A stretch of 22,296 nucleotides of DNA, from positions 1 to 22,296 of the IMG/VR virus record IMGVR_UViG_3300028840_007522. One strand, given 5' to 3'. The position numbers and the translations under genes were made by a program. Each line of letters opens with the position of its first letter. The stretch's first letter is position 1. Below the pieces are notes generated by a model. It made no database searches and was not told the DNA's origin. It worked only from the letters and a program-made list of their open reading frames with translations. The stretch comes from a virus. Below, in pieces: positions 1 through 20,195 of this stretch.

Positions 1-1
1 G

Positions 2-193
2 GACGTGAACGCCACCCTGCTGATTAAATCCGTGTCGTTCGTGTCCCGCAAGACCGAGGCGGGGGACGTGGAGGAGGTTGCGGACCTGGTGTTCGCCATC
101 CCCGACGCGTATGGTGAGGGGGCGACCCCGGGGGCCAGCGAGCGCCAGGTGACCGTCATAGGGGCCAACTTCAATCAGGAGGAGTTTCTGTGA
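2..193 (+). CDS. C-terminal fragment of baseplate hub protein (Mu gp44 / gpD-like)
   Basis: The reading frame is already open at the left window edge, so this is the 3' end of a longer gene; the GTG at position 5 is probably not the real start. The visible tail (LLIKSVSF, then an acidic stretch, then LVFAIPDAYGEG) resembles the end of Mu gp44/P2 gpD/VgrG-type hub proteins, which close with an 'IxSVxF ... LxLVxPDAY' pattern. Such proteins form the central hub of a contractile-tail baseplate, on which the spike sits. Its place directly before a gp45-like spike gene, with a GTGA stop/start overlap, matches the Mu tail gene order. The assignment rests on a short fragment plus context. Only the last roughly 63 residues are visible. 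Confidence 0.6.
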   Translation, partial: DVNATLLIKSVSFVSRKTEAGDVEEVADLVFAIPDAYGEGATPGASERQVTVIGANFNQEEFL

Positions 194-633
194 AAACGCT
201 GGTGGATGTGATAAACGGGCTTAAGGCCCTGCGGCAAAAGGTGGCCAACGTGGTCAAGTTGGCGGTGGTGACGAACGCCAGCGCCGACACGGGGATAGAC
301 ACCATCAGTCAGGTCGAGTACAAGGGCAAGCCGATAAACGCGGCCATGGTGTACCCGTACGGGCTTAGCGCGAACGCCCCCCGCAACTGCTCCGTCCTTT
401 TGTTCGCCCTTGGGGGCAGTAGTCAGAATCCCATTGGCATCCCCTTCTTCCCCGAGGTACGGGTGCGCGACCTCAAGGAAGGAGAGGTGGCGTTCTGCAA
501 CCTGCTGAAGAACACCTCATACATTAAGTTCAATGAAAACGGTGATATAGAGCTAATAACCCCAGGCGGTTTCGTCAAGTACGGGGCCGATGGAAAATTC
601 AACGTCAACGACAATTTCACGGTGGACCCATGA
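190..633 (+). CDS. Baseplate spike protein, Mu gp45-like
   Basis: This 147-aa protein matches the Mu gp45 (spike/gpV-type) pattern. An N-terminal segment is followed by a region with APRNCSVLLFALGGSSQNP, then R(V)RDLKEGEVAFCN, then a beta-rich C-terminus (IKFNENGDIELITPGG). The 'APRG-like ... LLFALGG ... LxxGEVAxxN' series followed by short repeated strands is typical of the OB-fold plus triple-stranded beta-helix spike. It is expected to trimerise below the hub and pierce the host envelope. The GTG start overlaps the hub stop codon, and its own stop overlaps the next ATG, so the three are probably translationally coupled. The length is somewhat shorter than Mu gp45. Family call is confident; symbol left blank because this is not Mu. 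Confidence 0.85.
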   Translation: MKTLVDVINGLKALRQKVANVVKLAVVTNASADTGIDTISQVEYKGKPINAAMVYPYGLSANAPRNCSVLLFALGGSSQNPIGIPFFPEVRVRDLKEGEVAFCNLLKNTSYIKFNENGDIELITPGGFVKYGADGKFNVNDNFTVDP

Positions 634-1013
634 GTCTGGAGTACATAGCGGTGGAAGGGTGCACGATAGAGCACGACGCGGGGTCGCCCATAAGTGGTGG
701 TTCCTTCACCATAACCTCCATAGCCAGCGCCAAGGTGAAGGTGGGGGGGAAGGGCGTGTACGCCCAGCAGATTGATTTCACGTTCAAGGACGGCAACGGC
801 CCCGGCGTCAGCCCCGGAACCGTCGTCGGTGGCGGCTCCATACTGTCCAAGGCCACCAAAGACAGGGCGGAGGGGCAACTGGTGGTGAGGGAGAACGACA
901 CGGGCACGCTGAGCGGGGCGGGCACCAACCCGGCGCCCCCGCCCCCCACGTTGCCCGTCAGCGGCGGCGTGATAATATCAGCGGCCGGGCAAACGAAAGC
1001 GAGGGGACGATAG
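630..1013 (+). CDS. Probable PAAR-like spike-tip or baseplate protein
   Basis: A 127-aa protein whose ATG overlaps the spike stop (ATGA). It is glycine-, threonine- and valine-rich with little predicted helix. It contains ISGGSFTITSIASAKVKVGGKGVY near residues 21-44, a Gly/Pro-rich middle, a QLVVRENDTGTLSG strand-turn, and a Pro-rich linker (APPPPTLPVSGGV) before a basic C-terminus. Repeated short strands with Gly turns and late Pro-Pro segments are seen in proteins beside gp45/gp46 in many Mu-like tails and in PAAR-type tips that sharpen the spike. I see no clear metal-binding His/Cys triad, so PAAR membership is inferred from position and composition. It could instead be another small baseplate component. 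Confidence 0.5.
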   Translation: MSLEYIAVEGCTIEHDAGSPISGGSFTITSIASAKVKVGGKGVYAQQIDFTFKDGNGPGVSPGTVVGGGSILSKATKDRAEGQLVVRENDTGTLSGAGTNPAPPPPTLPVSGGVIISAAGQTKARGR

Positions 1014-1487
1014 ATGGCTACGCCGAACGACACGGACGTTAAAGTGGACATTGCGCTGGTGTGGAACCAGGCGGACAAGACCTACGACTTCGAGATAGCC
1101 GATGACGGCGACTTCGTGGCCGCCTACGGCTTCGACACGTCGCTGGTTCAGGACGTGCTGGCGGAGCGGCGGGCGAACGAGGGCGAGGTGCCGGTGGCGG
1201 AACGGCGGCGGGGGTGGATTGGAAACGAGACGCCCGCGGAGCCGGGGTACGAGATCGGTTCCAAGCTGTGGTTCTATGAGCAGGCGAAGAACACGCTGAA
1301 CACCAAGAACGGATGTGCCGACGCCGTTCGGGATGCCCTGCAGTGGTACGTGCCCAGCCTGCTGAAAGACGTGCGCCTTACAAGTAAGCTATTGCCCCAG
1401 GGGGTGCAATTGGAGATTGAGTTGGTGCGCAAATCGGGCAAAATTGATAAACTTTACTTCAGATTGTGGGAACTGACTGGAATTTGA
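1014..1487 (+). CDS. Phage GP46 family baseplate wedge protein
   Basis: This 157-aa protein fits the phage GP46 family (Mu gp46, functional counterpart of T4 gp25/P2 gpW). It begins with DVKVDIALVWN and continues with FEIADDGDFVAAYGFDTSLVQDVLAERRA. It then has the diagnostic RRGWIGNE...GSKLWFYEQAKN block (about residues 63-91), followed by a helical segment and alternating strands (VQLEIELVRKSGK). The protein is part of the wedge that joins the baseplate to the sheath. It begins right after the stop of the preceding gene and sits between the spike genes and baseplate J, exactly as in Mu-type tails. The upstream sequence GAGGGGACG is a good ribosome-binding site. Confidence 0.88.
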   Translation: MATPNDTDVKVDIALVWNQADKTYDFEIADDGDFVAAYGFDTSLVQDVLAERRANEGEVPVAERRRGWIGNETPAEPGYEIGSKLWFYEQAKNTLNTKNGCADAVRDALQWYVPSLLKDVRLTSKLLPQGVQLEIELVRKSGKIDKLYFRLWELTGI

Positions 1488-1488
1488 C

Positions 1489-2808
1489 ATGGGTCTAATT
1501 TTACCGAACGATTCAAACGAGGTGGTCCAGCGCATCCTGCAGGATGTCAGGGCCGAACTTTCCAATTCGAACCCTTGGCTACGGAATAGCCTTATAAGGG
1601 CCATACCCGTGGGGCTTGGGAACAGGGCGTACGACTACTACTACCAACTGAAGGAGACGCTGAAACAGGCCTTCCCGAACACGGCGGAGGACGAGTGGCT
1701 TCAGATGTGGGCGGACTTGAAGAACATGACGCCGCTGACGGCCACCCCGTCCAAGGGGCCGGTCACCTTCATCGGCGCCTCCGCGGGCCTGACCATACCG
1801 GCGGGCACCACCTACGTCATAGGCGAACTCGAGTACACGGTGGACGCCGACGTGGACACGGCTCTGAACCTCAAAAGCGTGGCCAACCTGACCAGTAGCG
1901 GCACGACGGCGGTGTGCGTGACGGACGATGACCACGAATACGCCACGGGCATGAGCGTGTCCATACAGGGCGTTAACGAGGCGGGGTGGAACGCCTTGTG
2001 GGCGGACATAACGGTGACGGGCGCCAAGAGCTTCCAGTTCCAGGTGCCCGGCGGCCTTGTAAGCCCCGCCACGGGCACCATAGAGGCGTACGCCGTCACC
2101 GCCACCGGGAAGGTCACCTGCGCGGACGCGGGCACGGGCACGAACCAGGATAACGGCACGGAGTTGTCTATACAGGGCACGCCGATAGCGGGCGTGGATG
2201 ACGTGGCGGTGGTGCAGTGGGCGGGCCTGACGGGCGGCATAGACGACGAGACGACGGAGGATTACCAGGACCGCATAGTGAACCGCTGGCAGAACCCGCA
2301 GACCCCCTTCAACCCGGCGCGCATCGAATCTGTAATTCGAGGTATCAATGGAAATACCCGCGTATGGGTCCACCGCGTGACGCCGGTGGTGGGGGCGGTC
2401 ACCGCCTACTTCGTGCGCGACAACGACGCCACGATAATACCGGACCCCAGCGAGGTGCAGACGGCGCTGGACGCGGTGCTGGCTATAACACCCGCCAACA
2501 CGGACGAGAGCGATGTGCACATAGAGGCGCCCACGGGCAAGCCCATAAACGTGACGGTAAGTAGCGTGGCGCCGGACAACTTGAGCATGCGCCAGGCGGT
2601 GGAGGACACTATTAAAACTTACTACAGGGGGAGTCTGGCGGAGGGCGAGGACCACCTGGTGGAGAAGTTGCGTAGCGCCATCTTCCAGACGTACGACGTG
2701 GTGAAGGGCCAGCGCATCCAGTCCTTCGTGCTAGACTTGCCCACGGTGGACGAGCCGGTGGCGCAGGGCGAGATCGCCATAGAAGGGACGGTCACGGTGA
2801 ACAACTGA
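1489..2808 (+). CDS. Baseplate J-like protein (Mu gp47-like)
   Basis: 439 aa. The N-terminus (residues 1-80, with NPWLRNSLIRAIP and DEWLQMWADL) and the core (GTELSIQGTPIAGVDDVAVVQ ... GGIDDETTEDYQDRIVNRW, about residues 222-268) are typical of the baseplate J/gp47 family. The C-terminal half has the PINVTVSSVAPD strand and a long helix before LRSAIFQTYDVV. The protein forms the wedge ring of contractile tails. Residues 139-201 look like an inserted beta domain of the H...G..V.I.G....N...I.V.....F.F...ATG type that is common in phage structural proteins. The ATG lies 1 nt after the previous stop. The last base is shared with the next start codon. Length is normal to slightly long for the family because of the insert. 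Confidence 0.9.
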   Translation: MGLILPNDSNEVVQRILQDVRAELSNSNPWLRNSLIRAIPVGLGNRAYDYYYQLKETLKQAFPNTAEDEWLQMWADLKNMTPLTATPSKGPVTFIGASAGLTIPAGTTYVIGELEYTVDADVDTALNLKSVANLTSSGTTAVCVTDDDHEYATGMSVSIQGVNEAGWNALWADITVTGAKSFQFQVPGGLVSPATGTIEAYAVTATGKVTCADAGTGTNQDNGTELSIQGTPIAGVDDVAVVQWAGLTGGIDDETTEDYQDRIVNRWQNPQTPFNPARIESVIRGINGNTRVWVHRVTPVVGAVTAYFVRDNDATIIPDPSEVQTALDAVLAITPANTDESDVHIEAPTGKPINVTVSSVAPDNLSMRQAVEDTIKTYYRGSLAEGEDHLVEKLRSAIFQTYDVVKGQRIQSFVLDLPTVDEPVAQGEIAIEGTVTVNN

Positions 2809-3491
2809 TGCCTTTTTTGCCCACCAGAACGGATGACGAGCAGGCCAGGATAACGGCGGATTACCAGATTGACGGGCCGCATATGCGGGCCAAGCGCGTG
2901 CCGGGCAAGAACGTATTCAAGTACCTGCGGGCCATGTCCCGCGAGTTCGGGCGGCTGGAGCAGTACCTGCGGGACGCCAACGATGGGCGGCTGATAACCA
3001 GGGTCACCACCTTCCTGTCCGAATGGGAAAAGGCGGCGGGCATACCCGACGCCAATTTCCCGGCCATAGGCACGGAGGAGGAGCGGCGGCGGCACGTGGT
3101 GACCAAGCTGGCGAGCGAGGGGGTGAGCACGGCCGCCGATCTGGAGTGGCTTTGCTCGCTCATGGGCTTCAAGGTCACCGTGTACCCCGGCTATCATTTC
3201 ATATTGAACCCCGACCCGAGGATAACGTTCCCGATCGGCCCGGCCGGTGAGCGGGAGGCCCGTTTCACGGTGGTGTTCGAGGTCAATTTCGCCCAAAGCG
3301 TGCCGGACGCGGTGCCCAACCTGTTCCCCGTGCCCTTCCCATGGGAGTTCAGGAGCAACAACTACAACATAATCCAGGATTTCATGCTGGATATAATTCC
3401 ATCGAACTGCAACGCCAAGTGGATTGTCGCTCCGATCGACAATCCGGGCTACGGATATTTCCCGTACGGGATTAGCCCGTATGGGCTTTGA
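2808..3491 (+). CDS. DUF2313 / Mu gp48-like tail protein (YmfQ family)
   Basis: 227 aa, overlapping baseplate J by one base (TGATG). It carries the YmfQ/DUF2313 signature: an early LRAMSREFGRLEQYL helix, LITRVTTFLSEWEKAAGIPD (about residues 63-82), then TEEERRRHVVTKLASEGVSTAADLEWLCSLMGFKVTVYPG. In Mu the equivalent gp48 links the wedge to the tail fibre. The C-terminus here ends with a tyrosine/glycine-rich GYGYFPYGISPYGL tail, a sticky aromatic-Gly pattern seen in several family members. It lies directly upstream of the first fibre gene, as expected. Confidence 0.88.
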   Translation: MPFLPTRTDDEQARITADYQIDGPHMRAKRVPGKNVFKYLRAMSREFGRLEQYLRDANDGRLITRVTTFLSEWEKAAGIPDANFPAIGTEEERRRHVVTKLASEGVSTAADLEWLCSLMGFKVTVYPGYHFILNPDPRITFPIGPAGEREARFTVVFEVNFAQSVPDAVPNLFPVPFPWEFRSNNYNIIQDFMLDIIPSNCNAKWIVAPIDNPGYGYFPYGISPYGL

Positions 3492-3504
3492 GGAGTGAGT
3501 AGGC

Positions 3505-5880
3505 ATGCCGGAACCCAGAGTATACACTGACAAAAGGGGCTGGGGCCTTGTGCGCAAGGCCAGCGACCAGTACGAGCAGAGGGATTGGTTCAGCGAGCAG
3601 GTGGATTTCGCCAACTACATCGACGCCGATGTGGACAGCATAATACCGCTGGGCAAGGTGTACAGCCTGGCCGCCACGGGTAGCGCCACGGCCAACGGCA
3701 CGGCCCTGCGGGACGCGTACGCTGACGCCAAGACCAAATCCCCGTCCGCCACCAACATAATCAACATAGTTCTGAACGATGGGGCGTACGACATGGGGGG
3801 CGCCAGGCTGGACCTGGATACCGAGTACATAAACATCATAGGTCGCACGCCCGCCAGGCGCCACCAGTGGGTCAACTCGCCCCTCTGGACGGAGGTGGAT
3901 GCGGCGGGGGCCAGGATTTACAACGGTGAGCCGGGGTTCGGCGTTCTGAACGTCACCGTCAACAACGTGTTCCTGGTCAATCTGGACATAGCGAACGCCG
4001 CGTGGGCCAGCGTGCTCACCACGCAGTGCCCGGCCTCCGCCGTGGAGGGCATCGCCGTAATAGGTTGCTCCATACAAGGCACATGGGAGAGCCGGGGAGC
4101 CTGCCAGTACCTGTTCCACAACACCCACGCCGAGAACGGGCTTGGAAGTTCGGGCAACCCGCAGAACGGCGTGTTCATCAAGTGCTCCTCCAGTGGCGGG
4201 ATTAGCTTTTACAGCATGGGCGCCGGTTCCAACACGGCCCTGGTGGACCAGTGTTTGATTCTATACGAGCAGGGAGTGGGCCTGAACAACAGCCAGCATG
4301 ACAAGGTTCTGTTCCGCAACTGCAGGTTCTTCACCGACCCGGCGGAATACCTGTTCCCGATTTACAGCGGCGGCTCGGACACCAACGACACGGTCTTCCA
4401 GGGCTGTTACATGGACGCGGGATTTTTCAAGACGCAAAGCCCCAGCCCGGCATCGCTCTGCAGAATACGGGATTGCGTGATTAAACTGGCGGCGGGCCAG
4501 TACTTCATCGACGCCGGGGCGCACCTTATAAACAGCACGATCGAGAAGGCCACGGGCGGGACGATCGTGTATATAAAGGGCGCCAATTCTTTGATTCATT
4601 CATGTAGACTCATCGGCACCGGTGGCGGCGACGCGGTTACGCTGGGCGGGCCGCCAGTGGGGACCTATCACATCAGCGGCAACGAGATTTCCAACGGGGC
4701 CGCGGCCGGTGCTGGTATAAGCGTGTCCGTCCCGTACGCCGGGGGTAATAACCTTAACGGGCAATGGGTGGACACGGGCGGGGCGGCCTCTCCGTTCGAG
4801 GCGGGGGCGGGCACCAACAGCGCCAAGACGGTCGGCGGCTCCAACCTGGCGGACGGCGACTACAGTTTCGCCGAGGGGCAGAACATAGAGCTTGACGCCG
4901 AGGCGGATTACACGGCGGCCAGGGGTCGCAACCACAAGGCCTGGAACGCGTCGTTCGGGGACATGGCGGGGGACGCTAACATGCTGGGTTTCACCAGCCA
5001 GGACGATGGGACGTTCCACCTGCAGTTCGTGAAGGTGGGGAGCGACGTGACCGTGACTTTCGCTGGTGGAGTTGGTTTCAGCAACTACAGGTCCAGACCG
5101 TTGCTGGGGGCGCAGGTGCGCATAACCGGCACGGTGTCGAACGACGGGGTGTTCACCATAACCCAGCAGAACGCCTTCGGGACCGTGACGTACGTTAACG
5201 CCGGGGGCGCCAACGAGACGACATCCATAGGGGCCAAGGCCGCCATAGAGTCGCCCAATTTCGGGGATTCGGCGGACAACAACCGCATAGCGGGCGCCAA
5301 TTCGAGGATAATAGCGTGCAACAACGCCGACGTGATTGGAGATGGTTGCGTGGTGGTGGACGCCCCTGGCGGCAAGGCCAGCGGCACGCTGGCGGCGAAC
5401 CACCTGTGGGGAGCCGAGGTGCACAGCAACGGCTTCATAATATTGGGTCACACCACCATAGGCCTGGCCAGTCTAATCCGCAGGGTGTTGCACAACGCGC
5501 GCACCACGACCACGGGGTGGGTGAGCGCCAGCATAGGCCCCACGACGTACAACCGCAGATTGCGCCTCAAGCCGTACAAGGCGTATAGGGTGAAAAGCGA
5601 GATCGTGGCCAAGTTCAGGACGGCCAGCGGCACGCCGCAGATGAAGGTGTGGACGCTGATAGCGGCGGTGCAGACGGACAACACAAGCCCGAACCCCAGC
5701 GTGACAATTTTGGGGCAGACCAAGACCGTTGAGTTCGCCTCGGCCGTTGGCGGCGAGGCATCGTGGGACGTGCAGTTCGTGGCCAGTTCCCCGAACCTGG
5801 ATTTGCAGGTGCAGGGCGCCTTGGGCGAGGACGTGCTGTGGGCGGCCAACACGGAGGCGGTGGAGGTGGGGGACTACTGA
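3505..5880 (+). CDS. Tail fibre/tailspike with right-handed beta-helix
   Basis: 791 aa, starting after a strong AGGAG-like site (GAGGAGTGAGTAGGC). Residues about 1-50 are a short N-terminal segment (QYEQRDWFSEQVDFANYID) likely used for baseplate attachment. Residues about 85-420 are made of short repeated strands with N/G turns (INIVLNDGAYDM, INIIGRTPA, VFLVNLDIANA, VLFRNCRFF, TVFQGCYMDAGFF), the pattern of pectate-lyase-like beta-helices in tailspikes. Around residues 445-490 there is a Gly-Ala-Ser segment (DYSFAEGQNIELDAEADYTA) resembling YadA-head turns. Residues about 500-572 form another small beta domain. The last ~145 residues (WVSASIG...TTYNRRLRL...FKVW...WDVQF) look like the C-terminal domain found at the end of many phage tail proteins. 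Probably recognises or cleaves surface polysaccharide; no catalytic residues can be assigned by eye. Confidence 0.8.
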   Translation: MPEPRVYTDKRGWGLVRKASDQYEQRDWFSEQVDFANYIDADVDSIIPLGKVYSLAATGSATANGTALRDAYADAKTKSPSATNIINIVLNDGAYDMGGARLDLDTEYINIIGRTPARRHQWVNSPLWTEVDAAGARIYNGEPGFGVLNVTVNNVFLVNLDIANAAWASVLTTQCPASAVEGIAVIGCSIQGTWESRGACQYLFHNTHAENGLGSSGNPQNGVFIKCSSSGGISFYSMGAGSNTALVDQCLILYEQGVGLNNSQHDKVLFRNCRFFTDPAEYLFPIYSGGSDTNDTVFQGCYMDAGFFKTQSPSPASLCRIRDCVIKLAAGQYFIDAGAHLINSTIEKATGGTIVYIKGANSLIHSCRLIGTGGGDAVTLGGPPVGTYHISGNEISNGAAAGAGISVSVPYAGGNNLNGQWVDTGGAASPFEAGAGTNSAKTVGGSNLADGDYSFAEGQNIELDAEADYTAARGRNHKAWNASFGDMAGDANMLGFTSQDDGTFHLQFVKVGSDVTVTFAGGVGFSNYRSRPLLGAQVRITGTVSNDGVFTITQQNAFGTVTYVNAGGANETTSIGAKAAIESPNFGDSADNNRIAGANSRIIACNNADVIGDGCVVVDAPGGKASGTLAANHLWGAEVHSNGFIILGHTTIGLASLIRRVLHNARTTTTGWVSASIGPTTYNRRLRLKPYKAYRVKSEIVAKFRTASGTPQMKVWTLIAAVQTDNTSPNPSVTILGQTKTVEFASAVGGEASWDVQFVASSPNLDLQVQGALGEDVLWAANTEAVEVGDY

Positions 5881-6563
5881 TGAAAGTCATTTTGCTGAAT
5901 CTTGACCGTAGCGGGGGGCGCCTGGAGGCCATGAAAAAGGCGTTCCCGAACGAGCGGTTCGTCCGCCTGAAAGGCGTGGATGGTTCGGTCTACCAGAATG
6001 CCGGGGTTGGGCGACCCCAGATTTCGTCGGACGGGGCGGCGGAGTTGATAGCCAAGGGAGTGCTGGCGCAGAACCAGACGGCGCCGGTGCTGACGCCTGG
6101 CGAGGTGGGGTGCGCCATGGCGCACGGCAAGGCGTGGCGGCACATATTGAAGAAGGGTTGGAAGGCGGCCATAATAGTGGAGGACGACATAAAGCCGGGC
6201 GAGGCGTACAATGGCACGCTGGCCGAATCGGTGAAGGCTCTGGGCGGCGTGCCCAAGGGTGCCCACGTTCTGTTCCTGACGCACGCCGATGGGGTTGGAA
6301 ACCCGCCTAAAAGATGGGACGCCGAGGGGCGTCTGCTGTACGGCGGCGGGAACCACGCTTACGTGATAACGGCCGAGGGGGCGGAGAAGGCGCTGGCCGC
6401 CCAGTTCCCAATGTACCTATCTTGCGCGGAGCAGTGGCATGAAGGCCTGGATATGCGGGTGGCGCCCAGGGCGGTGGTGGAGATGGCGGGCACGGGCGCC
6501 CGTAGCACCATGAACTTTATGGGGGACGAGAAGACCCCGGCTAGGGAGAAGCGACATGAGTAG
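5880..6563 (+). CDS. Family 25 glycosyltransferase (LPS-type, GT25)
   Basis: 227 aa. The ATG at 5880 overlaps the fibre stop by one base (TGATG) and is preferred over upstream starts inside the fibre gene. It shows the GT25 pattern: N-terminal MKVILLNLDRSGGRLEAM, ERFVRLKGVDGS, then LTPGEVGCAMAHGKAW (residues 71-86), IIVEDDI with the acidic EDD at 101-103 (expected metal/nucleotide-sugar site), and later GGNHAYVITAEGAEKAL. The length is typical. GT25 enzymes add hexoses, usually to lipooligosaccharide or to protein hydroxylysine. Its gene is wedged between two tail-fibre genes with overlaps on both sides, so modification of a fibre protein or of host surface glycan are both possible. The substrate cannot be told from sequence. 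Confidence 0.85.
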   Translation: MKVILLNLDRSGGRLEAMKKAFPNERFVRLKGVDGSVYQNAGVGRPQISSDGAAELIAKGVLAQNQTAPVLTPGEVGCAMAHGKAWRHILKKGWKAAIIVEDDIKPGEAYNGTLAESVKALGGVPKGAHVLFLTHADGVGNPPKRWDAEGRLLYGGGNHAYVITAEGAEKALAAQFPMYLSCAEQWHEGLDMRVAPRAVVEMAGTGARSTMNFMGDEKTPAREKRHE

Positions 6564-8553
6564 CATTGGCAACAGACAGGGCGGATGCCCATCCATAGGA
6601 AACAGACCAGCCGGTGGTTCCGGCGGCGTGCCAGGGGCGCACGCTGGCACGCACGAGCCAGCGGGAACCGACCCGATACCGAGCGTGGTGAACTATAACG
6701 AGAGCGTGCTGGCCAGCAAGGAGGTCACGGGCTTCGCCGAACCCGAGAACGTGGTGGTGAGTTACGACCAGGGCACCCGCAAGGTGACGCTGACGGGAGC
6801 GGTGAAGGCGCTGTACAGGGGCGCGGTTATACCGGCGCTGGTGAGCGGGTGGCAAAGCCCGGCGCACGACCCGGGACCTACGCAGACGCTGTATTTGAAG
6901 TACAACGGCGGCGGATTTTCATGGTCGACCACGCCCTGGAGTTTCGACGAGGTTCAGATAGCGTACGTGTGCTACACCAGCGATGGGACGTTCAGGTTCG
7001 CCCAGCGCGAGGTGCATGGAAGCATGCCTTGGCAGACGCACAGGGAACTTCACCAGACACTCGGCACGTACAGGGAGACCGGGGGCGACGTGGGGGGGCT
7101 GGTGCCCGCCAGCGTGGCACAGGGCGATCGGCGCCCCACGGTCACGGCGTGTCTGTTGTATGATGAGGATTTGCCGACCACCAACCCCATACATAACAGC
7201 AAGAACGACTACACCAGGCTGTATCTAAATGGAGCGGCGGGCGACCCCGAGTGCGTGAAAAACGCGCTGGACGTGGTGCCGCTATCGGGTAGCAACCCGC
7301 AGTACAACCAATTCACCCTCGGCGCGTGGCAGTTGATGCTGGTGCCGAACAACGACTATTTCTCCGTCTGGCTCATAGGTATTCCGGCCAGCGCCGACGC
7401 CGAGAGCCAAAAGGCCCGCTTCGTGTGGATGATTGGGCAGAGCACAGGCACGCTTGTCGGCCAGCGGGGCCTGACCCCGGGCGACTTGTCGCTGGGGAAC
7501 TTCGCCATATTGTCGCCCGAGTTCACGTTCTTGGAGAAGCTTATCTACAGGTACACAAGCGGAGATTGGGTGTTCGTGGAGAGCCAGCGGATAACGGGCA
7601 CCAAAGCGGGGCAGGTGGCCAGCCCATCGGGCAATTACCTGACGACGGTGGCCAGCGACGCCACGCTGACGGGGGATGGTACGGGCGGGTCGCCCCTATC
7701 CGTGGCGTACGGCGCCGTGGCCGACACGGCGTGCGAGGGGGATGACGCCAGACTATCGGACGCCAGGACGCCAATATTGCACGCGGCCACGCACGAGAAC
7801 GGGGGCGGGGACGAGATTAGCGTGGCGGGGTTGAGCGGGTTGCTGGCGGACGCACAGACGCCATCGGCGCACGCTTCCAGTCATTCCGATGGCGGGGCGG
7901 ACGAGGTGAGCGTGTTGGACCTTGGGGGATACCCGGGCGGAACCGCCAATTTCCTCAGGGCCGACGGGGCGTTCGCCGCTCCTCCCGGCGGCGGCGGGGG
8001 CGCCTTTGAGGCGTGGTGGGAGGCCAACAATCTGGCCAACATCAGCAACAACTTCGCCCACCTCTACAAGTCCGCCAAGCAGAATGAGAACGATGTCACG
8101 CACACGAACCCGATAATGCGCTGGTACGACTCGCCGCAGAACGGCGGGGCGGACACTATTGTGGTGCCGGAGGCTGGCAACCTGACGGAAATACGGCTGG
8201 CGTTCCAGGGCGCGGCGGTCGGCACCGGCACCGTCGGGGCGGCGCCCACCGTGCGTATAGGTTTCTACAAGGAGAACGCCACGGGTTCGGGCTGGACGTT
8301 GCTGGCGTACAGGGATATTCCCATATCCCCGACCGGTGTCGGCACATTCAACAACAGCCCGACCGGAAGCCCGCAATCCATACTGAACGACATGGGTGAC
8401 GTGGCGGTGGCGGCTGGTGACGTTATTGGGTGGGTGTTCATCAACGCCGCTCAGAACATCGGAGGCGGCCCGCAGGGTGGCGGCGTGTCGGACGACCGCA
8501 TAAACGCCATAAGGTGCCTGAAAACCAGTGTCCACTTCGTGGCCAGTTCATAA
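6556..8553 (+). CDS. Large tail fibre protein with HxxxH-type repeats
   Basis: 665 aa; the ATG overlaps the glycosyltransferase by 8 nt. The N-terminus has a tandem decapeptide-like repeat (SIGNRQGGCP / SIGNRPAGGS). Three copies of an A-H-x-x-(T/S)-H-x-x-(G)-G-x-D-(E/P) motif occur: residues about 28-40, and two about 30 residues apart near nt 7780-7905. Such repeats are widespread in phage fibre shafts. A short Gly-rich linker (PPGGGGGAF, near nt 7981-8010) separates the shaft from a C-terminal beta-rich domain (IRLAFQGAAVGTGTVG, VRIGFYKENATGSGWTLL, VIGWVFINA), which is a plausible receptor-binding head. Codon use matches the neighbours. I infer a side tail fibre; the receptor is unknown. 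Confidence 0.75.
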   Translation: MSSIGNRQGGCPSIGNRPAGGSGGVPGAHAGTHEPAGTDPIPSVVNYNESVLASKEVTGFAEPENVVVSYDQGTRKVTLTGAVKALYRGAVIPALVSGWQSPAHDPGPTQTLYLKYNGGGFSWSTTPWSFDEVQIAYVCYTSDGTFRFAQREVHGSMPWQTHRELHQTLGTYRETGGDVGGLVPASVAQGDRRPTVTACLLYDEDLPTTNPIHNSKNDYTRLYLNGAAGDPECVKNALDVVPLSGSNPQYNQFTLGAWQLMLVPNNDYFSVWLIGIPASADAESQKARFVWMIGQSTGTLVGQRGLTPGDLSLGNFAILSPEFTFLEKLIYRYTSGDWVFVESQRITGTKAGQVASPSGNYLTTVASDATLTGDGTGGSPLSVAYGAVADTACEGDDARLSDARTPILHAATHENGGGDEISVAGLSGLLADAQTPSAHASSHSDGGADEVSVLDLGGYPGGTANFLRADGAFAAPPGGGGGAFEAWWEANNLANISNNFAHLYKSAKQNENDVTHTNPIMRWYDSPQNGGADTIVVPEAGNLTEIRLAFQGAAVGTGTVGAAPTVRIGFYKENATGSGWTLLAYRDIPISPTGVGTFNNSPTGSPQSILNDMGDVAVAAGDVIGWVFINAAQNIGGGPQGGGVSDDRINAIRCLKTSVHFVASS

Positions 8554-8563
8554 GGGGTAGAAG

Positions 8564-9109
8564 ATGAAAAGTCTAGTTTCTATAGTCAATATAACCGGCG
8601 CCACCATAACGCTTTTCGCCATGGATTTTGAGCCTGGGGTGCCGGTCATGGTGTATCGCAACAAGAACGTGTTCACGCCCGGCCAGGATTTCGGGCTGTT
8701 GCTGTACCATGTGCAGGCGGGCGAGATGGTGGGGTATACGCTTGACGGGGAGGCCAACACGGCGGCCGAGATGAGTGTCACGCTGGACACGCTGAAGAAC
8801 GAGTTGCTGTCGTACCAGAACCGGGGCAGTTACTCGCCCGAGTACCACTGGAAGAAGGCCAGTTGCTACGACCTGATTGACGGGCTGACCAAACAACTGG
8901 ACGAGTTCGACTTCGGGGGCGCTGGCGTGACCGTGTCCGAATTCGACACGCTGAACAAGATTGACCCCACGCTGACCTTCCTGAACGGCGGGATGCTGGG
9001 GTACGCCAAGAAAATTCTGGACGGCACCACGCCCGACACGGATAATGATTTCCTGTCGGCGGCGAGGCTGGCCCAATATTCCGCGCTATTCGGTAGCGCG
9101 AACCAGTGA
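8564..9109 (+). CDS. Unknown tail-module protein
   Basis: 181 aa, preceded by a good ribosome-binding site (AAGGGGTAGAAG). I do not recognise the family. The N-terminal half is beta-rich (SLVSIVNITGATITLFAMDF, VPVMVYRNKNVF). The middle is helical (AAEMSVTLDTLKNELLSY), and the C-terminal part is mixed (YDLIDGLTKQLDEFDF, TFLNGGMLGYAKKIL). There is no signal peptide or membrane segment. It sits between the large fibre gene and small tail-region genes, so it may be a fibre-associated or chaperone-like protein; this is inferred from context only. Confidence 0.6.
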   Translation: MKSLVSIVNITGATITLFAMDFEPGVPVMVYRNKNVFTPGQDFGLLLYHVQAGEMVGYTLDGEANTAAEMSVTLDTLKNELLSYQNRGSYSPEYHWKKASCYDLIDGLTKQLDEFDFGGAGVTVSEFDTLNKIDPTLTFLNGGMLGYAKKILDGTTPDTDNDFLSAARLAQYSALFGSANQ

Positions 9110-9121
9110 GGAGAGTAAGTC

Positions 9122-9403
9122 ATGGCAGAACCTGTGATAGTAGCGTGCCCGGAGGACAAATGGACCAAGGTGGCGGCCGGTGTGACGGCTGGCGTGGTGC
9201 GCATAGTCAAGGGATACCAGGATAGCGAGAATTGCTACCAGACATACAGGCTGGCGGCCGGTGGCGGCCCGGCGCCGGTGGATGGGGTGATTGGCGACGG
9301 CGTGCCGATGGCGGCGCAGGAGATGCCGATAGCCAGCACGGACCTGATTGACGTGTACATAATGCCGACGCAGAAGGCCATTGAGGTGCGGGTGGATTTG
9401 TAG
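9122..9403 (+). CDS. Small unknown tail-module protein
   Basis: 93 aa, preceded by GGAGAGTAAGTC. The sequence is beta-rich: WTKVAAGVTAGVVRIVKG, a CYQTYRLAAGGGPAP loop, and a closing IDVYIMPTQKAIEVRVDL strand pair. It has two cysteines and no membrane segment. Small proteins with a 'W.kva.g...g.v.....' opening and a 'DvYi.....a..v.v' ending are common among phage head or tail decoration proteins. I cannot assign a role. Its place among fibre genes argues for a virion or assembly protein. Confidence 0.55.
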   Translation: MAEPVIVACPEDKWTKVAAGVTAGVVRIVKGYQDSENCYQTYRLAAGGGPAPVDGVIGDGVPMAAQEMPIASTDLIDVYIMPTQKAIEVRVDL

Positions 9404-9437
9404 GCGCGTTTTTTTGGGGGTACAGATGGAGGAGATT

Positions 9438-9836
9438 ATGCCGTCCGAGGACACTATACAGAAGATTTTCAACACGCTTGACGGCATAAAGACCGACACG
9501 GGCGAGACGAAAATAAAAGTGGCCCGCATTGAGGCCCAGCTGGAGCACAAGGTGGACGAGGTGAAGATGATAAGGGAGGTGGAAAAGCAAACGGCGGCGG
9601 CCATAACCACCCACGTCACCAACTGCAGGGCGTCCGAGGTGACGGGCAGGATAGATGTTCCCAGCCGCGGGGCGCCCGTGGTGGTGGCGGATGACAAGCC
9701 AGATAAAAACAGCGGCACGATCCGCATCAGCATTTCCGGTCTTCATCCCGTGGTTCGGTGGATTTTATATATTGGCATCCCTACGGCGATGGCGTTCGGT
9801 GGCCACCAGGTGGGGAGCGGAGGAATAGGACAATGA
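9438..9836 (+). CDS. Coiled-coil membrane protein, holin/XhlA-like
   Basis: 132 aa if the ATG at 9438 is used; a GGAGGAG stretch just upstream favours it, though the ATG at 9426 is also in frame with a GGGGGT behind it. Residues about 5-60 are a charged amphipathic helix (IFNTLDGIKTDTGETKIKVA, RIEAQLEHKVDEVKMIREVE) that should form a coiled coil. A Pro/Gly linker follows, then one predicted membrane segment near the C-terminus (VVRWILYIGIPTAMAFGG). A coiled coil followed by a single C-terminal transmembrane helix is the layout of XhlA/hemolysin-type holin partners. The role in lysis is inferred from layout only. Its stop overlaps the next ATG (ATGA). Confidence 0.6.
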   Translation: MPSEDTIQKIFNTLDGIKTDTGETKIKVARIEAQLEHKVDEVKMIREVEKQTAAAITTHVTNCRASEVTGRIDVPSRGAPVVVADDKPDKNSGTIRISISGLHPVVRWILYIGIPTAMAFGGHQVGSGGIGQ

Positions 9837-10885
9837 AACAAATCCCAATTCAACAGGATAACGTCACCGCCCTTTCGGCGGACGATTTCAACCAGATTCC
9901 AAGGGAACTGGAAAACGTCATACAGGTTTCCGGTCAGACGCTGGACGGGGGCGACCTGAACCAAATCAACAAGTCGGTGTCCGGCCACGTGGCGGCGGCG
10001 GATTATTACCTGGCGGGCGGACCGGTGAACGCCATGATACTGTCGGCCGCCAACTCGTTCTTCCTGCCCACTGAATACTTCAAGGGCATGCGCGTGCGTT
10101 TCAAGCCCAACAACACCAACACGGCCACGGGGGTGACGATGGCGGTGGTGGCGCTGGGCGTAGTGCCTTTGCACCTGGGGCAGTTGCCGAACGGTGGCAC
10201 GCCATCCGTCCCGATCGGGGCGTTGCCGGAGGACGCCATAGCGGAGGCGGTGTATGACGAGACGCCGGACACGCTGACCAAGTACTTCAGGTTGGTGAGC
10301 GTGGCGACCAGGGACGCCACGGGCACGAAGACGGCGGAGCGCACGCCGCTGGGCGACACGTACGAGGACAGCGGAGACGGCTCCGTCATGGAGATTGGCG
10401 CCGGTTTCGGCACCCTGCCAGCGGCCAGATACGAGAGCGGGGACAGCGGGAAGATAATTATTTGGGACAAGGACGGGGCGGAGGTGCGCAACCCCGCGGG
10501 GTCCGCCTACCAGCTGAAAACCAGCAACAACGGCCGCGGCATCTCCTTTATAGGCGGCCCAGGGCTGGACGTGGGCAACATGCGGGCCGCCAGGTTCAAC
10601 ATATCCAGCCTGACCTACTCGCCCGTCACCGGCGGCTATGTCAGCGCCGACTCCGTGGTGCTGACGGGCTTGCCGTACGCCGCCGCCCGTTTCTACATGG
10701 CCTTCGTGGTGTTCACCGCCTCGGGCAACGAATACGTGTACCCGGCGCACGTGACCATCAGGGACGATGGAGGTGGCGTGGCCGAGTTGATTTCCACCCG
10801 CGTGAACGCCGCCGTCGCGCCCGATGTGGGGAGCGCCTCCGACCAAAGACTAATCCTCTGGTACAACGCCACGGCCGTGGACTAG
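9833..10885 (+). CDS. Third tail fibre / receptor-binding-type protein
   Basis: 350 aa; ATG at 9833 overlaps the preceding stop by 4 nt and has GGAGGAATAGGA before it. The N-terminus (LSADDFNQIPRELENVIQVS, then QTLDGGDLNQINKSVSG) matches the short helical attachment segment seen at the start of many small phage fibre proteins. Residues about 65-110 are beta-rich (FKGMRVRFKPNNTNTATG), a common 'G..v.v....N.g.t' shaft domain. The C-terminal half (AARFYMAFVVFTASGNEY, HVTIRDDGGGVAEL) looks like a compact beta-sandwich head. It is the last gene before the switch to regulatory and recombination genes. Virion-fibre function is inferred from this layout and the location. Confidence 0.7.
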   Translation: MKQIPIQQDNVTALSADDFNQIPRELENVIQVSGQTLDGGDLNQINKSVSGHVAAADYYLAGGPVNAMILSAANSFFLPTEYFKGMRVRFKPNNTNTATGVTMAVVALGVVPLHLGQLPNGGTPSVPIGALPEDAIAEAVYDETPDTLTKYFRLVSVATRDATGTKTAERTPLGDTYEDSGDGSVMEIGAGFGTLPAARYESGDSGKIIIWDKDGAEVRNPAGSAYQLKTSNNGRGISFIGGPGLDVGNMRAARFNISSLTYSPVTGGYVSADSVVLTGLPYAAARFYMAFVVFTASGNEYVYPAHVTIRDDGGGVAELISTRVNAAVAPDVGSASDQRLILWYNATAVD

Positions 10886-10917
10886 TTGACATCGGCCCTT
10901 TTACATGTCTAAATAAT
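10886..10917 (+). promoter_or_regulatory. Candidate promoter at start of early region
   Basis: A perfect TTGACA (10886-10891) lies immediately after the last fibre gene. A usable -10 is less clear: TAAATA at 10910 gives an 18-bp spacer with 3/6 matches, while AATAAT at 10912-10917 matches 5/6 but at 20 bp. The spacer contains TTTTACATGT, nine bases of which recur in the next promoter. It would transcribe the small regulator at 10946. Confidence 0.4.
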
Positions 10918-10945
10918 GCCGTAACCGCGAACCAGGGGGTTTGAT

Positions 10946-11236
10946 ATGCCTGACGACGACGGCAACCTTTCCAAGTACGCCAAGTGGCAACGCAAATATA
11001 GGGCCAAGAAAAAGGACGAGGGGTACAAGCTGATCACCGCCTATGTGCCGGAGGAGTTCGATGCCCGCTTCAGACGCATAATAAAGGCCATAAAGCCGGA
11101 GAGGGAGGATGGGGACCTGCAGTTTTTCATGGCCCTTGAGCGGGCGAAGAACATGATGGACGACGGGCGGGTGGTCAAGCTCTGGCGGGACGCCGACGGC
11201 TGGCACGCCATTGACGGCGGCAAGCACAAACTCTAA
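10946..11236 (+). CDS. Small basic protein, possible ribbon-helix-helix DNA binder
   Basis: 96 aa, with a clear ribosome-binding site (CAGGGGGTTTGAT). The N-terminus is very basic (KYAKWQRKYRAKKKDEG) and is followed by a strand-like YKLITAYVPEEFDARFRRII that resembles the beta strand plus first helix of Arc/MetJ-type DNA-binding proteins. A second helix (FFMALERAKNMM) and a short C-terminal WHAIDGG segment follow. It is the first gene after the tail module, behind a promoter-like sequence, which suits a transcription regulator. The family assignment is tentative. Confidence 0.55.
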   Translation: MPDDDGNLSKYAKWQRKYRAKKKDEGYKLITAYVPEEFDARFRRIIKAIKPEREDGDLQFFMALERAKNMMDDGRVVKLWRDADGWHAIDGGKHKL

Positions 11237-19315: not shown

Positions 19316-19495
19316 ATGGAACAGCTGGAACTGGCGTTGGACCGCGGGTGCGGGACGTGCGTCAACGACTACGCCCCAAGGCCCCGTCACGATGGGGTCG
19401 GGTGCTACCACTGTTATTTCCGGCCGTTCGACGACGAGCGGGACCGCTGGGGATACATGAATTGGGAGGGCAAGACCGATGAAAGTGATATATGA
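19316..19495 (+). CDS. Small Cys-rich protein upstream of radical SAM gene
   Basis: 59 aa, starting at the ATG at 19316 (preceded by AGGGTGGG) and ending at TGA 19493-19495. It has RGCGTCVNDY, then GVGCYHCYFRPF, giving a C-x2-C ... C-x2-C pair that could bind zinc. The C-terminus is acidic and aromatic (DERDRWGYMNWEGK). It overlaps the radical SAM start by 17 nt, so the two are probably co-translated. Function unknown. Confidence 0.55.
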   Translation: MEQLELALDRGCGTCVNDYAPRPRHDGVGCYHCYFRPFDDERDRWGYMNWEGKTDESDI

Positions 19496-20195
19496 GCCGA
19501 AGGGAGGCGCCAGGGAGTACGCCCCGCTGGCGGCCAACCTGTACAGGGGTTGCATGCACGGATGCGAATACTGTTACGCGCCCAGAGTGTTGCGCATGAA
19601 CAGGGAGGATTTCAGGTACGCCGCGGCCCCCCGGCGGGACGTGCTGGAGCACCTTGCGCGGGAACTGAAGACGGGCGAATATGAGGGCAAGAGCATATTT
19701 CTAAGCTTCACCACGGACCCCTACCAGCCGATCGAGGCGGAGGCCAGTATAACCCGCAAGGCGCTGGAACTGTTCAGGGCGTACCGGGTGCACTGGAACG
19801 TGCTCACGAAATCGGCGCTGGCCGTTCGGGATTTCGACCTGTACCGCCCAGGGGACAGGTTCGGCGCCACGCTTGTGTACTTCAGCGAAAAGGAATCGGC
19901 CAGGCGGGAACCCGGGGCCTTCACCACCAAAGAGAGGGAGCGGGCTTTGCACGAGGCGCACGGCATGGGGATAGACACGTGGGTGTCTCTGGAGCCTGTG
20001 ATAGACCCGCTGGATGCGCTGGCGCTGATACGCCGCACCAGCTACTTCGTGAACGAGTACAAGATAGGCAAAATCAATTACGTTAGCAATGAAACTGACT
20101 GGTATGAATTCGCGCGCATGGCGAAAGACCTGCTGGAAAACCTTGGCAAAAGATACGTTTTCAAGGAGAGCCTCAAGCCGTACCTGCCCGAGTGA
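19479..20195 (+). CDS. Radical SAM protein, spore photoproduct lyase-like
   Basis: 238 aa. The iron-sulfur motif C-x3-C-x2-C is at residues 25, 29 and 32 (YRGCMHGCEYCYAP), with the SPL-type NLYRGC lead. Further on are KSIFLSFTTDPYQPIE, VLTKSALAVRDFDLY, and WVSLEPVIDPLDAL, all typical of SplB-like/DNA repair photolyase-type radical SAM proteins. Known relatives split thymine photoproducts or have unknown tasks, so lesion repair is only one option. It is a little short against full SplB (about 340 aa). The stop is followed by a promoter for the next gene. Confidence 0.82.
   Translation: MKVIYEPKGGAREYAPLAANLYRGCMHGCEYCYAPRVLRMNREDFRYAAAPRRDVLEHLARELKTGEYEGKSIFLSFTTDPYQPIEAEASITRKALELFRAYRVHWNVLTKSALAVRDFDLYRPGDRFGATLVYFSEKESARREPGAFTTKERERALHEAHGMGIDTWVSLEPVIDPLDALALIRRTSYFVNEYKIGKINYVSNETDWYEFARMAKDLLENLGKRYVFKESLKPYLPE

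What the first reader, a model, noticed from the sequence alone, without database searches (positions are those of the whole stretch)
5880..6563. GT25 glycosyltransferase coupled between two tail-fibre genes
A complete GT25-type enzyme (LTPGEVGCAMAH, IIVEDDI) overlaps the fibre gene before it by 1 nt and the fibre gene after it by 8 nt. Such tight coupling suggests it works on a virion protein, possibly glycosylating the fibre during assembly. Alternatively it alters the host surface to block re-infection. Glycosylation of tail fibres by a phage-encoded GT25 would be unusual.
Basis: partly seen in the sequence, partly recalled or inferred. Interest (0 to 1): 0.68.

Follow-up and report, generated by a model that had tools for sequence, protein, structure and literature searches.

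The report
Phage sugar-transferase gene between fibre genes
A virus of bacteria carries, wedged between two genes for its host-gripping fibres, a gene for an enzyme that attaches sugars; the gene is real and belongs to a swappable fibre module, but nothing here shows whether it sugars the fibre or the host, and one normally invariant active-site residue is changed.

Summary
The gene is real: 5880-6563 (+), 227 aa, PF01755 (GT25) E=1.3e-12, with exactly the stated overlaps (1 nt, 8 nt). A predicted model matches COLGALT1 (Z 15.8), a bacterial beta-1,4-galactosyltransferase (15.7) and mimivirus R655 (15.0) equally well, so the fold does not reveal the acceptor. Tight coupling is no evidence: overlaps recur in this operon (baseplate J/gp48 overlap by 1 nt here and in a relative). 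Better evidence is that relative, L005: gp46, J, gp48 and the genes downstream are conserved, but the roughly 5.7-kb fibre block between them is unrelated and lacks GT25. The enzyme therefore belongs to an exchangeable fibre cassette. Elsewhere GT25 genes also lie beside tail fibres, including a fused GT25-PLOD-hydroxylase enzyme coupled to a collagen-like tail protein. Against simple fibre glycosylation: the closest homologues found are bacterial chromosomal enzymes, two in probable LPS-gene surroundings; the window has no collagen repeats or hydroxylase; and the near-invariant PxD Asp (81 of 82 other sequences) is most likely Tyr179 here. Fibre glycosylation is narrowly favoured (0.42) over host-glycan modification (0.35) and a non-catalytic protein (0.18).

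The parts
5880..6563 (+). GT25 glycosyltransferase gene, 227 aa
   Evidence: PF01755 1.3e-12; phrog_2835 7.2e-12; AlphaFold2 model pLDDT 70, best PDB matches are GT25 enzymes with Z 12 to 16
6090..6125 (+). Motif LTPGEVGCAMAH, residues 71-82; Ser81 of the family is Ala here
6180..6188 (+). EDD motif, residues 101-103, the metal and nucleotide-sugar site of GT25
   Evidence: Conserved in the 83-sequence alignment; EDD is the metal site of COLGALT1 (PMC13382579)
6414..6416 (+). Codon 179, TAC (Tyr), in the column where 81 of 82 other GT25 sequences have Asp (PxD motif)
   Evidence: an alternative alignment places Glu184 there
5878..5882 (+). TGATG: stop of the upstream gene overlapping the start of GT25 by 1 nt
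6556..6563 (+). 8-nt overlap of GT25 with the downstream fibre gene
3505..5880 (+). Tailspike- or fibre-like protein, 791 aa, probable beta-helix
   Evidence: PF13229 E=0.0014, below its cut-off; position after baseplate genes; no relative found
6556..8553 (+). Fibre-like protein, 665 aa
   Evidence: PHROG tail families, best 4.2e-6; residues 53-397 are 44-45% identical to parts of large proteins in four other phage contigs
8564..9109 (+). 181-aa gene of unknown function, last gene of the cassette
   Evidence: No family match; not related to L005 genes in the same place
1014..1487 (+). gp46-like baseplate protein (backbone)
   Evidence: phrog_180 5.3e-15; 84% identical in L005
1489..2808 (+). 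Baseplate J protein (backbone)
   Evidence: PF04865 5.8e-38; 77% identical in L005
2808..3491 (+). gp48-like baseplate protein, left border of the cassette (similarity to L005 stops at residue 211)
   Evidence: PF10076 1.1e-8, just under its cut-off, and phrog_203 2.5e-14; 76% identical over 211 aa
9122..9403 (+). 93-aa gene, right border of the cassette
   Evidence: 53% identical in L005

Best explanation
A single-domain, soluble GT25 enzyme carried as cargo of an exchangeable receptor-binding (fibre) cassette in a contractile-tailed phage. Made from the same message as the two fibres, it most likely adds a hexose from a nucleotide sugar to one of those fibre proteins before or during assembly. 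Shown: the gene, its family and predicted fold, its place in the cassette, and the absence of both the gene and these fibres from a related phage. Inferred: late co-expression, activity, donor sugar, and the fibre as acceptor.
For: Sandwiched between two fibre-like genes on one strand with 1-nt and 8-nt overlaps. Exchanged together with the fibres in L005. Composition matches the neighbours, so it is long resident. No integrase, rve transposase or resolvase in the window or the 42-kb relative, which argues against a lysogen-only host-modifying role. Parallel in other phages: GT25-PLOD-2OG enzyme coupled by 1 nt to a collagen-like tail protein in L013, and collagen repeats in the records of L014, L015 and L021, whose GT25 is joined to a weak 2OG-type domain. 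Virion proteins are glycosylated in mycobacteriophages Che8 and Rita (as cited in PMC11256854).
Against: Coupling is ordinary in this operon. The window has no collagen repeats and no hydroxylase was seen. The related fibre domain occurs in four contigs in which no GT25 was found. The closest homologues are bacterial chromosomal enzymes, two with probable LPS-gene neighbours. The PxD Asp is probably lost. I know of no GT25 shown to act on unmodified Ser or Thr (own knowledge).
Confidence: 0.42

Rival explanations
1. The enzyme adds a hexose to the host's surface glycan (LPS or LOS core, or a capsule), hiding the receptor used by the fibres beside it, so that progeny are not trapped by debris or the infected cell resists further phage. 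It travels with the fibres because both match the same receptor.
For: The closest homologues found are chromosomal: Hyphomicrobiales 33%, Idiomarina 29%, Glaciecola 27% over about 210 aa, two of them in probable LPS-gene surroundings. The characterised bacterial GT25 enzymes named in PMC3244457 (Lex2B, LpsB) build LPS. In other phages GT25 sits at the edge of the tail region, convergent with fibre genes, as expected of a host-modifying cargo gene (L009, L046, AP3, L012, L063). Cassette exchange fits receptor matching equally well.
Against: Placed inside the fibre block on the same strand rather than as a separate unit; no lysogeny genes found, though the window is a fragment; no flippase, membrane or other sugar gene beside it in the window.
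Confidence: 0.35
2. The protein no longer transfers sugar, or does so by changed chemistry: it kept the GT-A fold and the nucleotide-sugar site but lost the PxD acid, and may serve as a binding or structural partner of the fibres, or be decaying.
For: The PxD Asp (81 of 82 others) is probably Tyr179, and Ser81 is Ala; very long branch in the tree. In most inverting GT-A enzymes an xED Asp or Glu is the catalytic base (PMC7185993); that PxD is this residue in GT25 is inference. GT-A domains that have become scaffolds are known, such as the N-terminal domain of COLGALT1 (PMC13382579).
Against: EDD, Gly77, Cys78, His82 and Tyr161 are kept; the frame is open and codon use normal. A different alignment places Glu184, also acidic, in the PxD column. 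Some inverting families lack the xED Asp.
Confidence: 0.18

Closest known systems
Bacterial GT25 LPS/LOS hexosyltransferases (Lex2B, LpsB; solved beta-1,4-galactosyltransferase 8xkd)
   Same: Single GT-A domain of similar length, LTxGExGC, SH-like and EDD motifs; model matches 8xkd with Z 15.7 over 179 residues
   Different: Encoded in a phage fibre cassette; Ser81 to Ala and PxD Asp probably Tyr; acceptor unknown
COLGALT1 (collagen hydroxylysine galactosyltransferase) and mimivirus L230
   Same: The C-terminal GT25 domain shares fold and EDD (Z 15.8; sequence match 1.5e-4 to 2.4e-4); these show that GT25 enzymes can act on proteins (PMC3244457, PMC9614988)
   Different: No second GT domain, no hydroxylase, no RMQV stretch, no collagen repeats in the window
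GT25-PLOD-2OG fusions beside collagen-like tail proteins in uncultured phages (L013; related L008, L025, L100)
   Same: GT25 domain; in L013 coupled by 1 nt to a tail protein gene
   Different: Fused to PLOD GT and 2OG oxygenase domains; PxD Asp present; the partner carries collagen repeats
Burkholderia phage AP3 GT25 (P2-like) and similar prophage genes L012, L063
   Same: GT25 in a contractile-tailed phage at the tail region, 23% identical
   Different: Sits by gpD at the end of the tail genes, not between fibre genes; PxD Asp present
Mycobacteriophage virion glycosylation (Che8, Rita)
   Same: Phage glycosyltransferase genes linked to sugars on virion proteins (PMC11256854)
   Different: Genes near the 3' end of the genome, major capsid protein modified; here the substrate is unproven and the gene lies in the fibre cassette

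Membership tests
GT25 (PF01755) | Match to the family profile above its curated cut-off | tested here: met
   48.4 bits against 24, E=1.3e-12; N-terminal half of the profile only
GT25 (PF01755) | GT-A fold like solved GT25 enzymes | tested here: met
   Predicted model, Z 15.8, 15.7 and 15.0 to COLGALT1, 8xkd and R655 against about 10 for other GT-A enzymes
GT25 (PF01755) | EDD metal and nucleotide-sugar motif | tested here: met
   Residues 101-103
GT25 (PF01755) | Conserved PxD Asp (not a formal defining feature; near-invariant in the alignment) | tested here: inconclusive
   Tyr179 in the 83-sequence alignment, Glu184 in the 20-sequence alignment
GT25 (PF01755) | Hexosyltransferase activity | not testable with these tools
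   Needs a biochemical assay
Collagen-type GT25 (COLGALT1, L230) | Second GT domain or lysyl hydroxylase domain | tested here: not met
   227-aa single domain; only PF01755 found
Collagen-type GT25 (COLGALT1, L230) | Collagen-like substrate in the same genome | tested here: inconclusive
   No PF01391 match in the 22-kb record, which is a fragment
Phage virion-glycosylating enzyme | Sugar on a virion protein that depends on the gene | not testable with these tools
   Needs expression or virions and mass spectrometry
Serotype-converting (host-surface) phage enzyme | Change of host surface glycan in carriers of the gene | not testable with these tools
   Needs glycan analysis
Serotype-converting (host-surface) phage enzyme | Carried by a temperate phage | tested here: inconclusive
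   No PF00589, PF00665 or PF00239 match in the window or in L005's record; the window is a fragment and other lysogeny genes were not sought

The most novel reading that the evidence does not exclude
A GT25 enzyme encoded inside a receptor-binding cassette glycosylates the fibre it is made with, as one case of a wider, undescribed habit of tailed phages to pair GT25 enzymes with tail proteins, whose clearest form is the GT25-PLOD-hydroxylase fusion coupled to a collagen-like tail protein.
Probability: 0.3. Interest if true: 0.75.

Novelty: new member of a known kind. Interest (0 to 1): 0.42.

Why it matters
If the fibre is the substrate, adsorption and host range could depend on a sugar that cannot be read from the fibre sequence, which matters for predicting host range from genomes. 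If the host is the substrate, one cassette would carry both the key and the means to change the lock. Either way, exchange of GT25 together with the fibres gives a testable pairing.

Tried and rejected
Close relatives of the GT25 were sought in IMG/VR with the single protein (none) and with two alignments (71 and 10 loci, none above about 34% identity over 100 residues or more). An 8-sequence alignment was too diverse to scan with. Relatives of the phage in bacterial genomes through baseplate J: none. Fibre 3505-5880: no relative in phages or IMG/VR. Whole window against phage DNA: none. The tree leaves this protein on a long branch with no strongly supported group, so ancestry is not argued from it. 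Fold comparison as a guide to substrate was rejected, because protein-type and LPS-type enzymes score alike. Tight coupling as evidence of function was rejected. The COLGALT1 structure papers were not held, so the role of the PxD Asp in GT25 remains inferred.

Full report
Observation. The window is a linear IMG/VR virus record of 22,296 bases. ORF 5880-6563 (+) encodes 227 aa with LTPGEVGCAMAH at residues 71-82 and IIVEDDI at 98-104. The overlaps are as described: TGATG with the gene before it and 8 nt with the gene after it. PF01755 matches at 1.3e-12 and PHROG 2835 at 7e-12. The genes from 1014 to 3491 encode contractile-tail baseplate proteins: gp46-like, J (PF04865, 5.8e-38) and gp48-like. 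The 3505-5880 product has a weak beta-helix match and the 6556-8553 product has PHROG tail matches; calling both fibres is an inference from these and from position.

Fold. An AlphaFold2 model built on 20 sequences (mean pLDDT 70, pTM 0.73) matches human COLGALT1 (Z 15.8, 188 residues, 3.6 A), a bacterial beta-1,4-galactosyltransferase (8xkd, Z 15.7) and mimivirus R655 (Z 15.0), well above other GT-A enzymes at about 10. This supports a GT25-type GT-A fold and says nothing about the acceptor, since protein-modifying and saccharide-modifying members tie.

Active site. Across 83 aligned GT25 domains from phages, bacteria and two solved enzymes, EDD (101-103), His82 and most other conserved positions are kept in the window's protein. 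Two positions differ: Ser81, present in 81 of the 82 others, is Ala; the Asp of the PxD motif, also in 81 of the 82 others, is Tyr179. The three closest bacterial homologues align without gaps from the Pro to a shared Trp (PFDVALERGW, PVDVDMQWQW and PVDIDLQYWW against PMYLSCAEQW). An earlier 20-sequence alignment put Glu184 in that column, so an acidic replacement is not excluded, and the model is weak there (mean pLDDT 53 to 62). In most inverting GT-A enzymes an xED Asp or Glu is the catalytic base (PMC7185993); equating it with PxD in GT25 is my inference, as the COLGALT1 structure papers were not held.

Coupling. In the same operon J and gp48 overlap by 1 nt and the genes at 190 and 630 by 4 nt, and J and gp48 also overlap by 1 nt in relative L005. 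Overlaps are therefore ordinary here and do not point to a substrate. The GT25 gene shares the composition of its neighbours (GC 63.7%, ATA for 6 of 8 Ile codons), so it does not look like a recent arrival.

Cassette. The only relative found through baseplate J is L005, in a 42-kb record. It keeps gp46 (84%), J (77%), gp48 (76% over residues 1-211 of 227) and, after the fibre region, the 9122 gene (53%) and the 9381 gene (33%). Between the 3' end of gp48 and 9122 nothing is related: L005 has three other genes there. No GT25 was found in the whole record by Pfam or by a profile that finds it in the window and in five other records whose sequences are in the model. So GT25 belongs to an exchangeable block of about 5.7 kb with both fibre genes and the 8564 gene. 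One relative is a small sample. The block fits a fibre substrate, and equally a receptor-masking enzyme that must match the fibre's receptor.

Survey. An IMG/VR scan with a 4-sequence alignment gave 71 GT25 loci; a second, aimed at relatives of the closest bacterial sequences, gave 10. From neighbour lengths and one locus read in full (L003) many appear to lie in marine-phage runs of sugar genes; I did not annotate them all, so no proportion is claimed. Cases read individually and lying next to tail genes are L007 (tail fibre, fibre-associated gene, GT25), L009 (GT25 convergent with a Caudo_TAP gene and a fibre), L046 (GT25 convergent with a fibre), and L063, L012 and AP3 (GT25 by gpD). In L013 a 2637-aa protein with collagen repeats (PF01391, 100 bits) and a Phage-tail_3 domain overlaps by 1 nt (TAGTG) a 630-aa GT25 - PLOD GT - 2OG oxygenase fusion. 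Collagen repeats also occur in the records of L014, L015 and L021, whose GT25 is joined to a weak, sub-threshold 2OG-type domain. These are a parallel for GT25 enzymes acting on tail proteins, not evidence about the window's enzyme, which has neither repeats nor hydroxylase.

Homologues. The closest sequences found are bacterial: L083 Hyphomicrobiales 33%, L082 Idiomarina 29%, L084 Glaciecola 27% over about 210 aa. L082 follows another glycosyltransferase-like gene and L084 lies near what I read by eye as a KdkA-like kinase, which suggests LPS work; the surroundings of L083 were not informative. This favours a saccharide acceptor by ancestry.

Lifestyle. No tyrosine integrase, rve transposase or resolvase family was found in the window or in L005's record, while the controls rang. 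The window is a fragment, so this weakens but does not exclude lysogenic conversion.

Weighing. Fibre glycosylation 0.42, host-glycan modification 0.35, non-catalytic or altered protein 0.18, remainder other. Shown: the gene, family, predicted fold, overlaps, cassette exchange in one relative, and a changed PxD position. Inferred: late expression, activity, donor, acceptor. No paper in this library was found that describes GT25 in phage tail regions, nor hydroxylysine in phage collagen-like tail proteins; the library is open-access only and is searched by exact words, so this is weak evidence of novelty.

Verdict. A real and moderately interesting arrangement: a known enzyme family inside a phage fibre cassette.

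Noticed in passing
L013:88-9893 (IMGVR_UViG_3300031851_000121): A 2637-aa tail protein with collagen-like repeats is coupled by 1 nt (TAGTG) to a 630-aa GT25 - PLOD GT - 2OG oxygenase fusion, the domain set of collagen lysyl hydroxylation and glycosylation. A possible phage collagen-modifying system, arguably more striking than the given finding.
   Followed up: partly
L015:3114-8926, also the records of L014 and L021: Collagen repeats (in L015 an 861-aa collagen-like tail fibre) in phages that also carry a 2OG oxygenase-like gene and a GT25 gene with a weak 2OG-type domain; in L015 all within about 6 kb.
   Followed up: partly
L025:63-4831: Two adjacent large genes, both with GT25 and PLOD GT domains, one also with an FkbM methyltransferase domain.
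   Followed up: no
window 1-11236: Unusual codon use for a 61% GC genome: ATA makes up half or more of the Ile codons in most late genes counted. The host was not identified.
   Followed up: no
window 19479-20195: Radical SAM protein (PF04055) in the early-type region of the phage, function unknown.
   Followed up: no
window 6556-8553, residues 53-397: This part of the fibre is 44-45% identical to parts of 1200- to 1300-aa proteins in four other phage contigs with otherwise different gene surroundings; no GT25 was found in those records, some of which are short fragments.
   Followed up: partly
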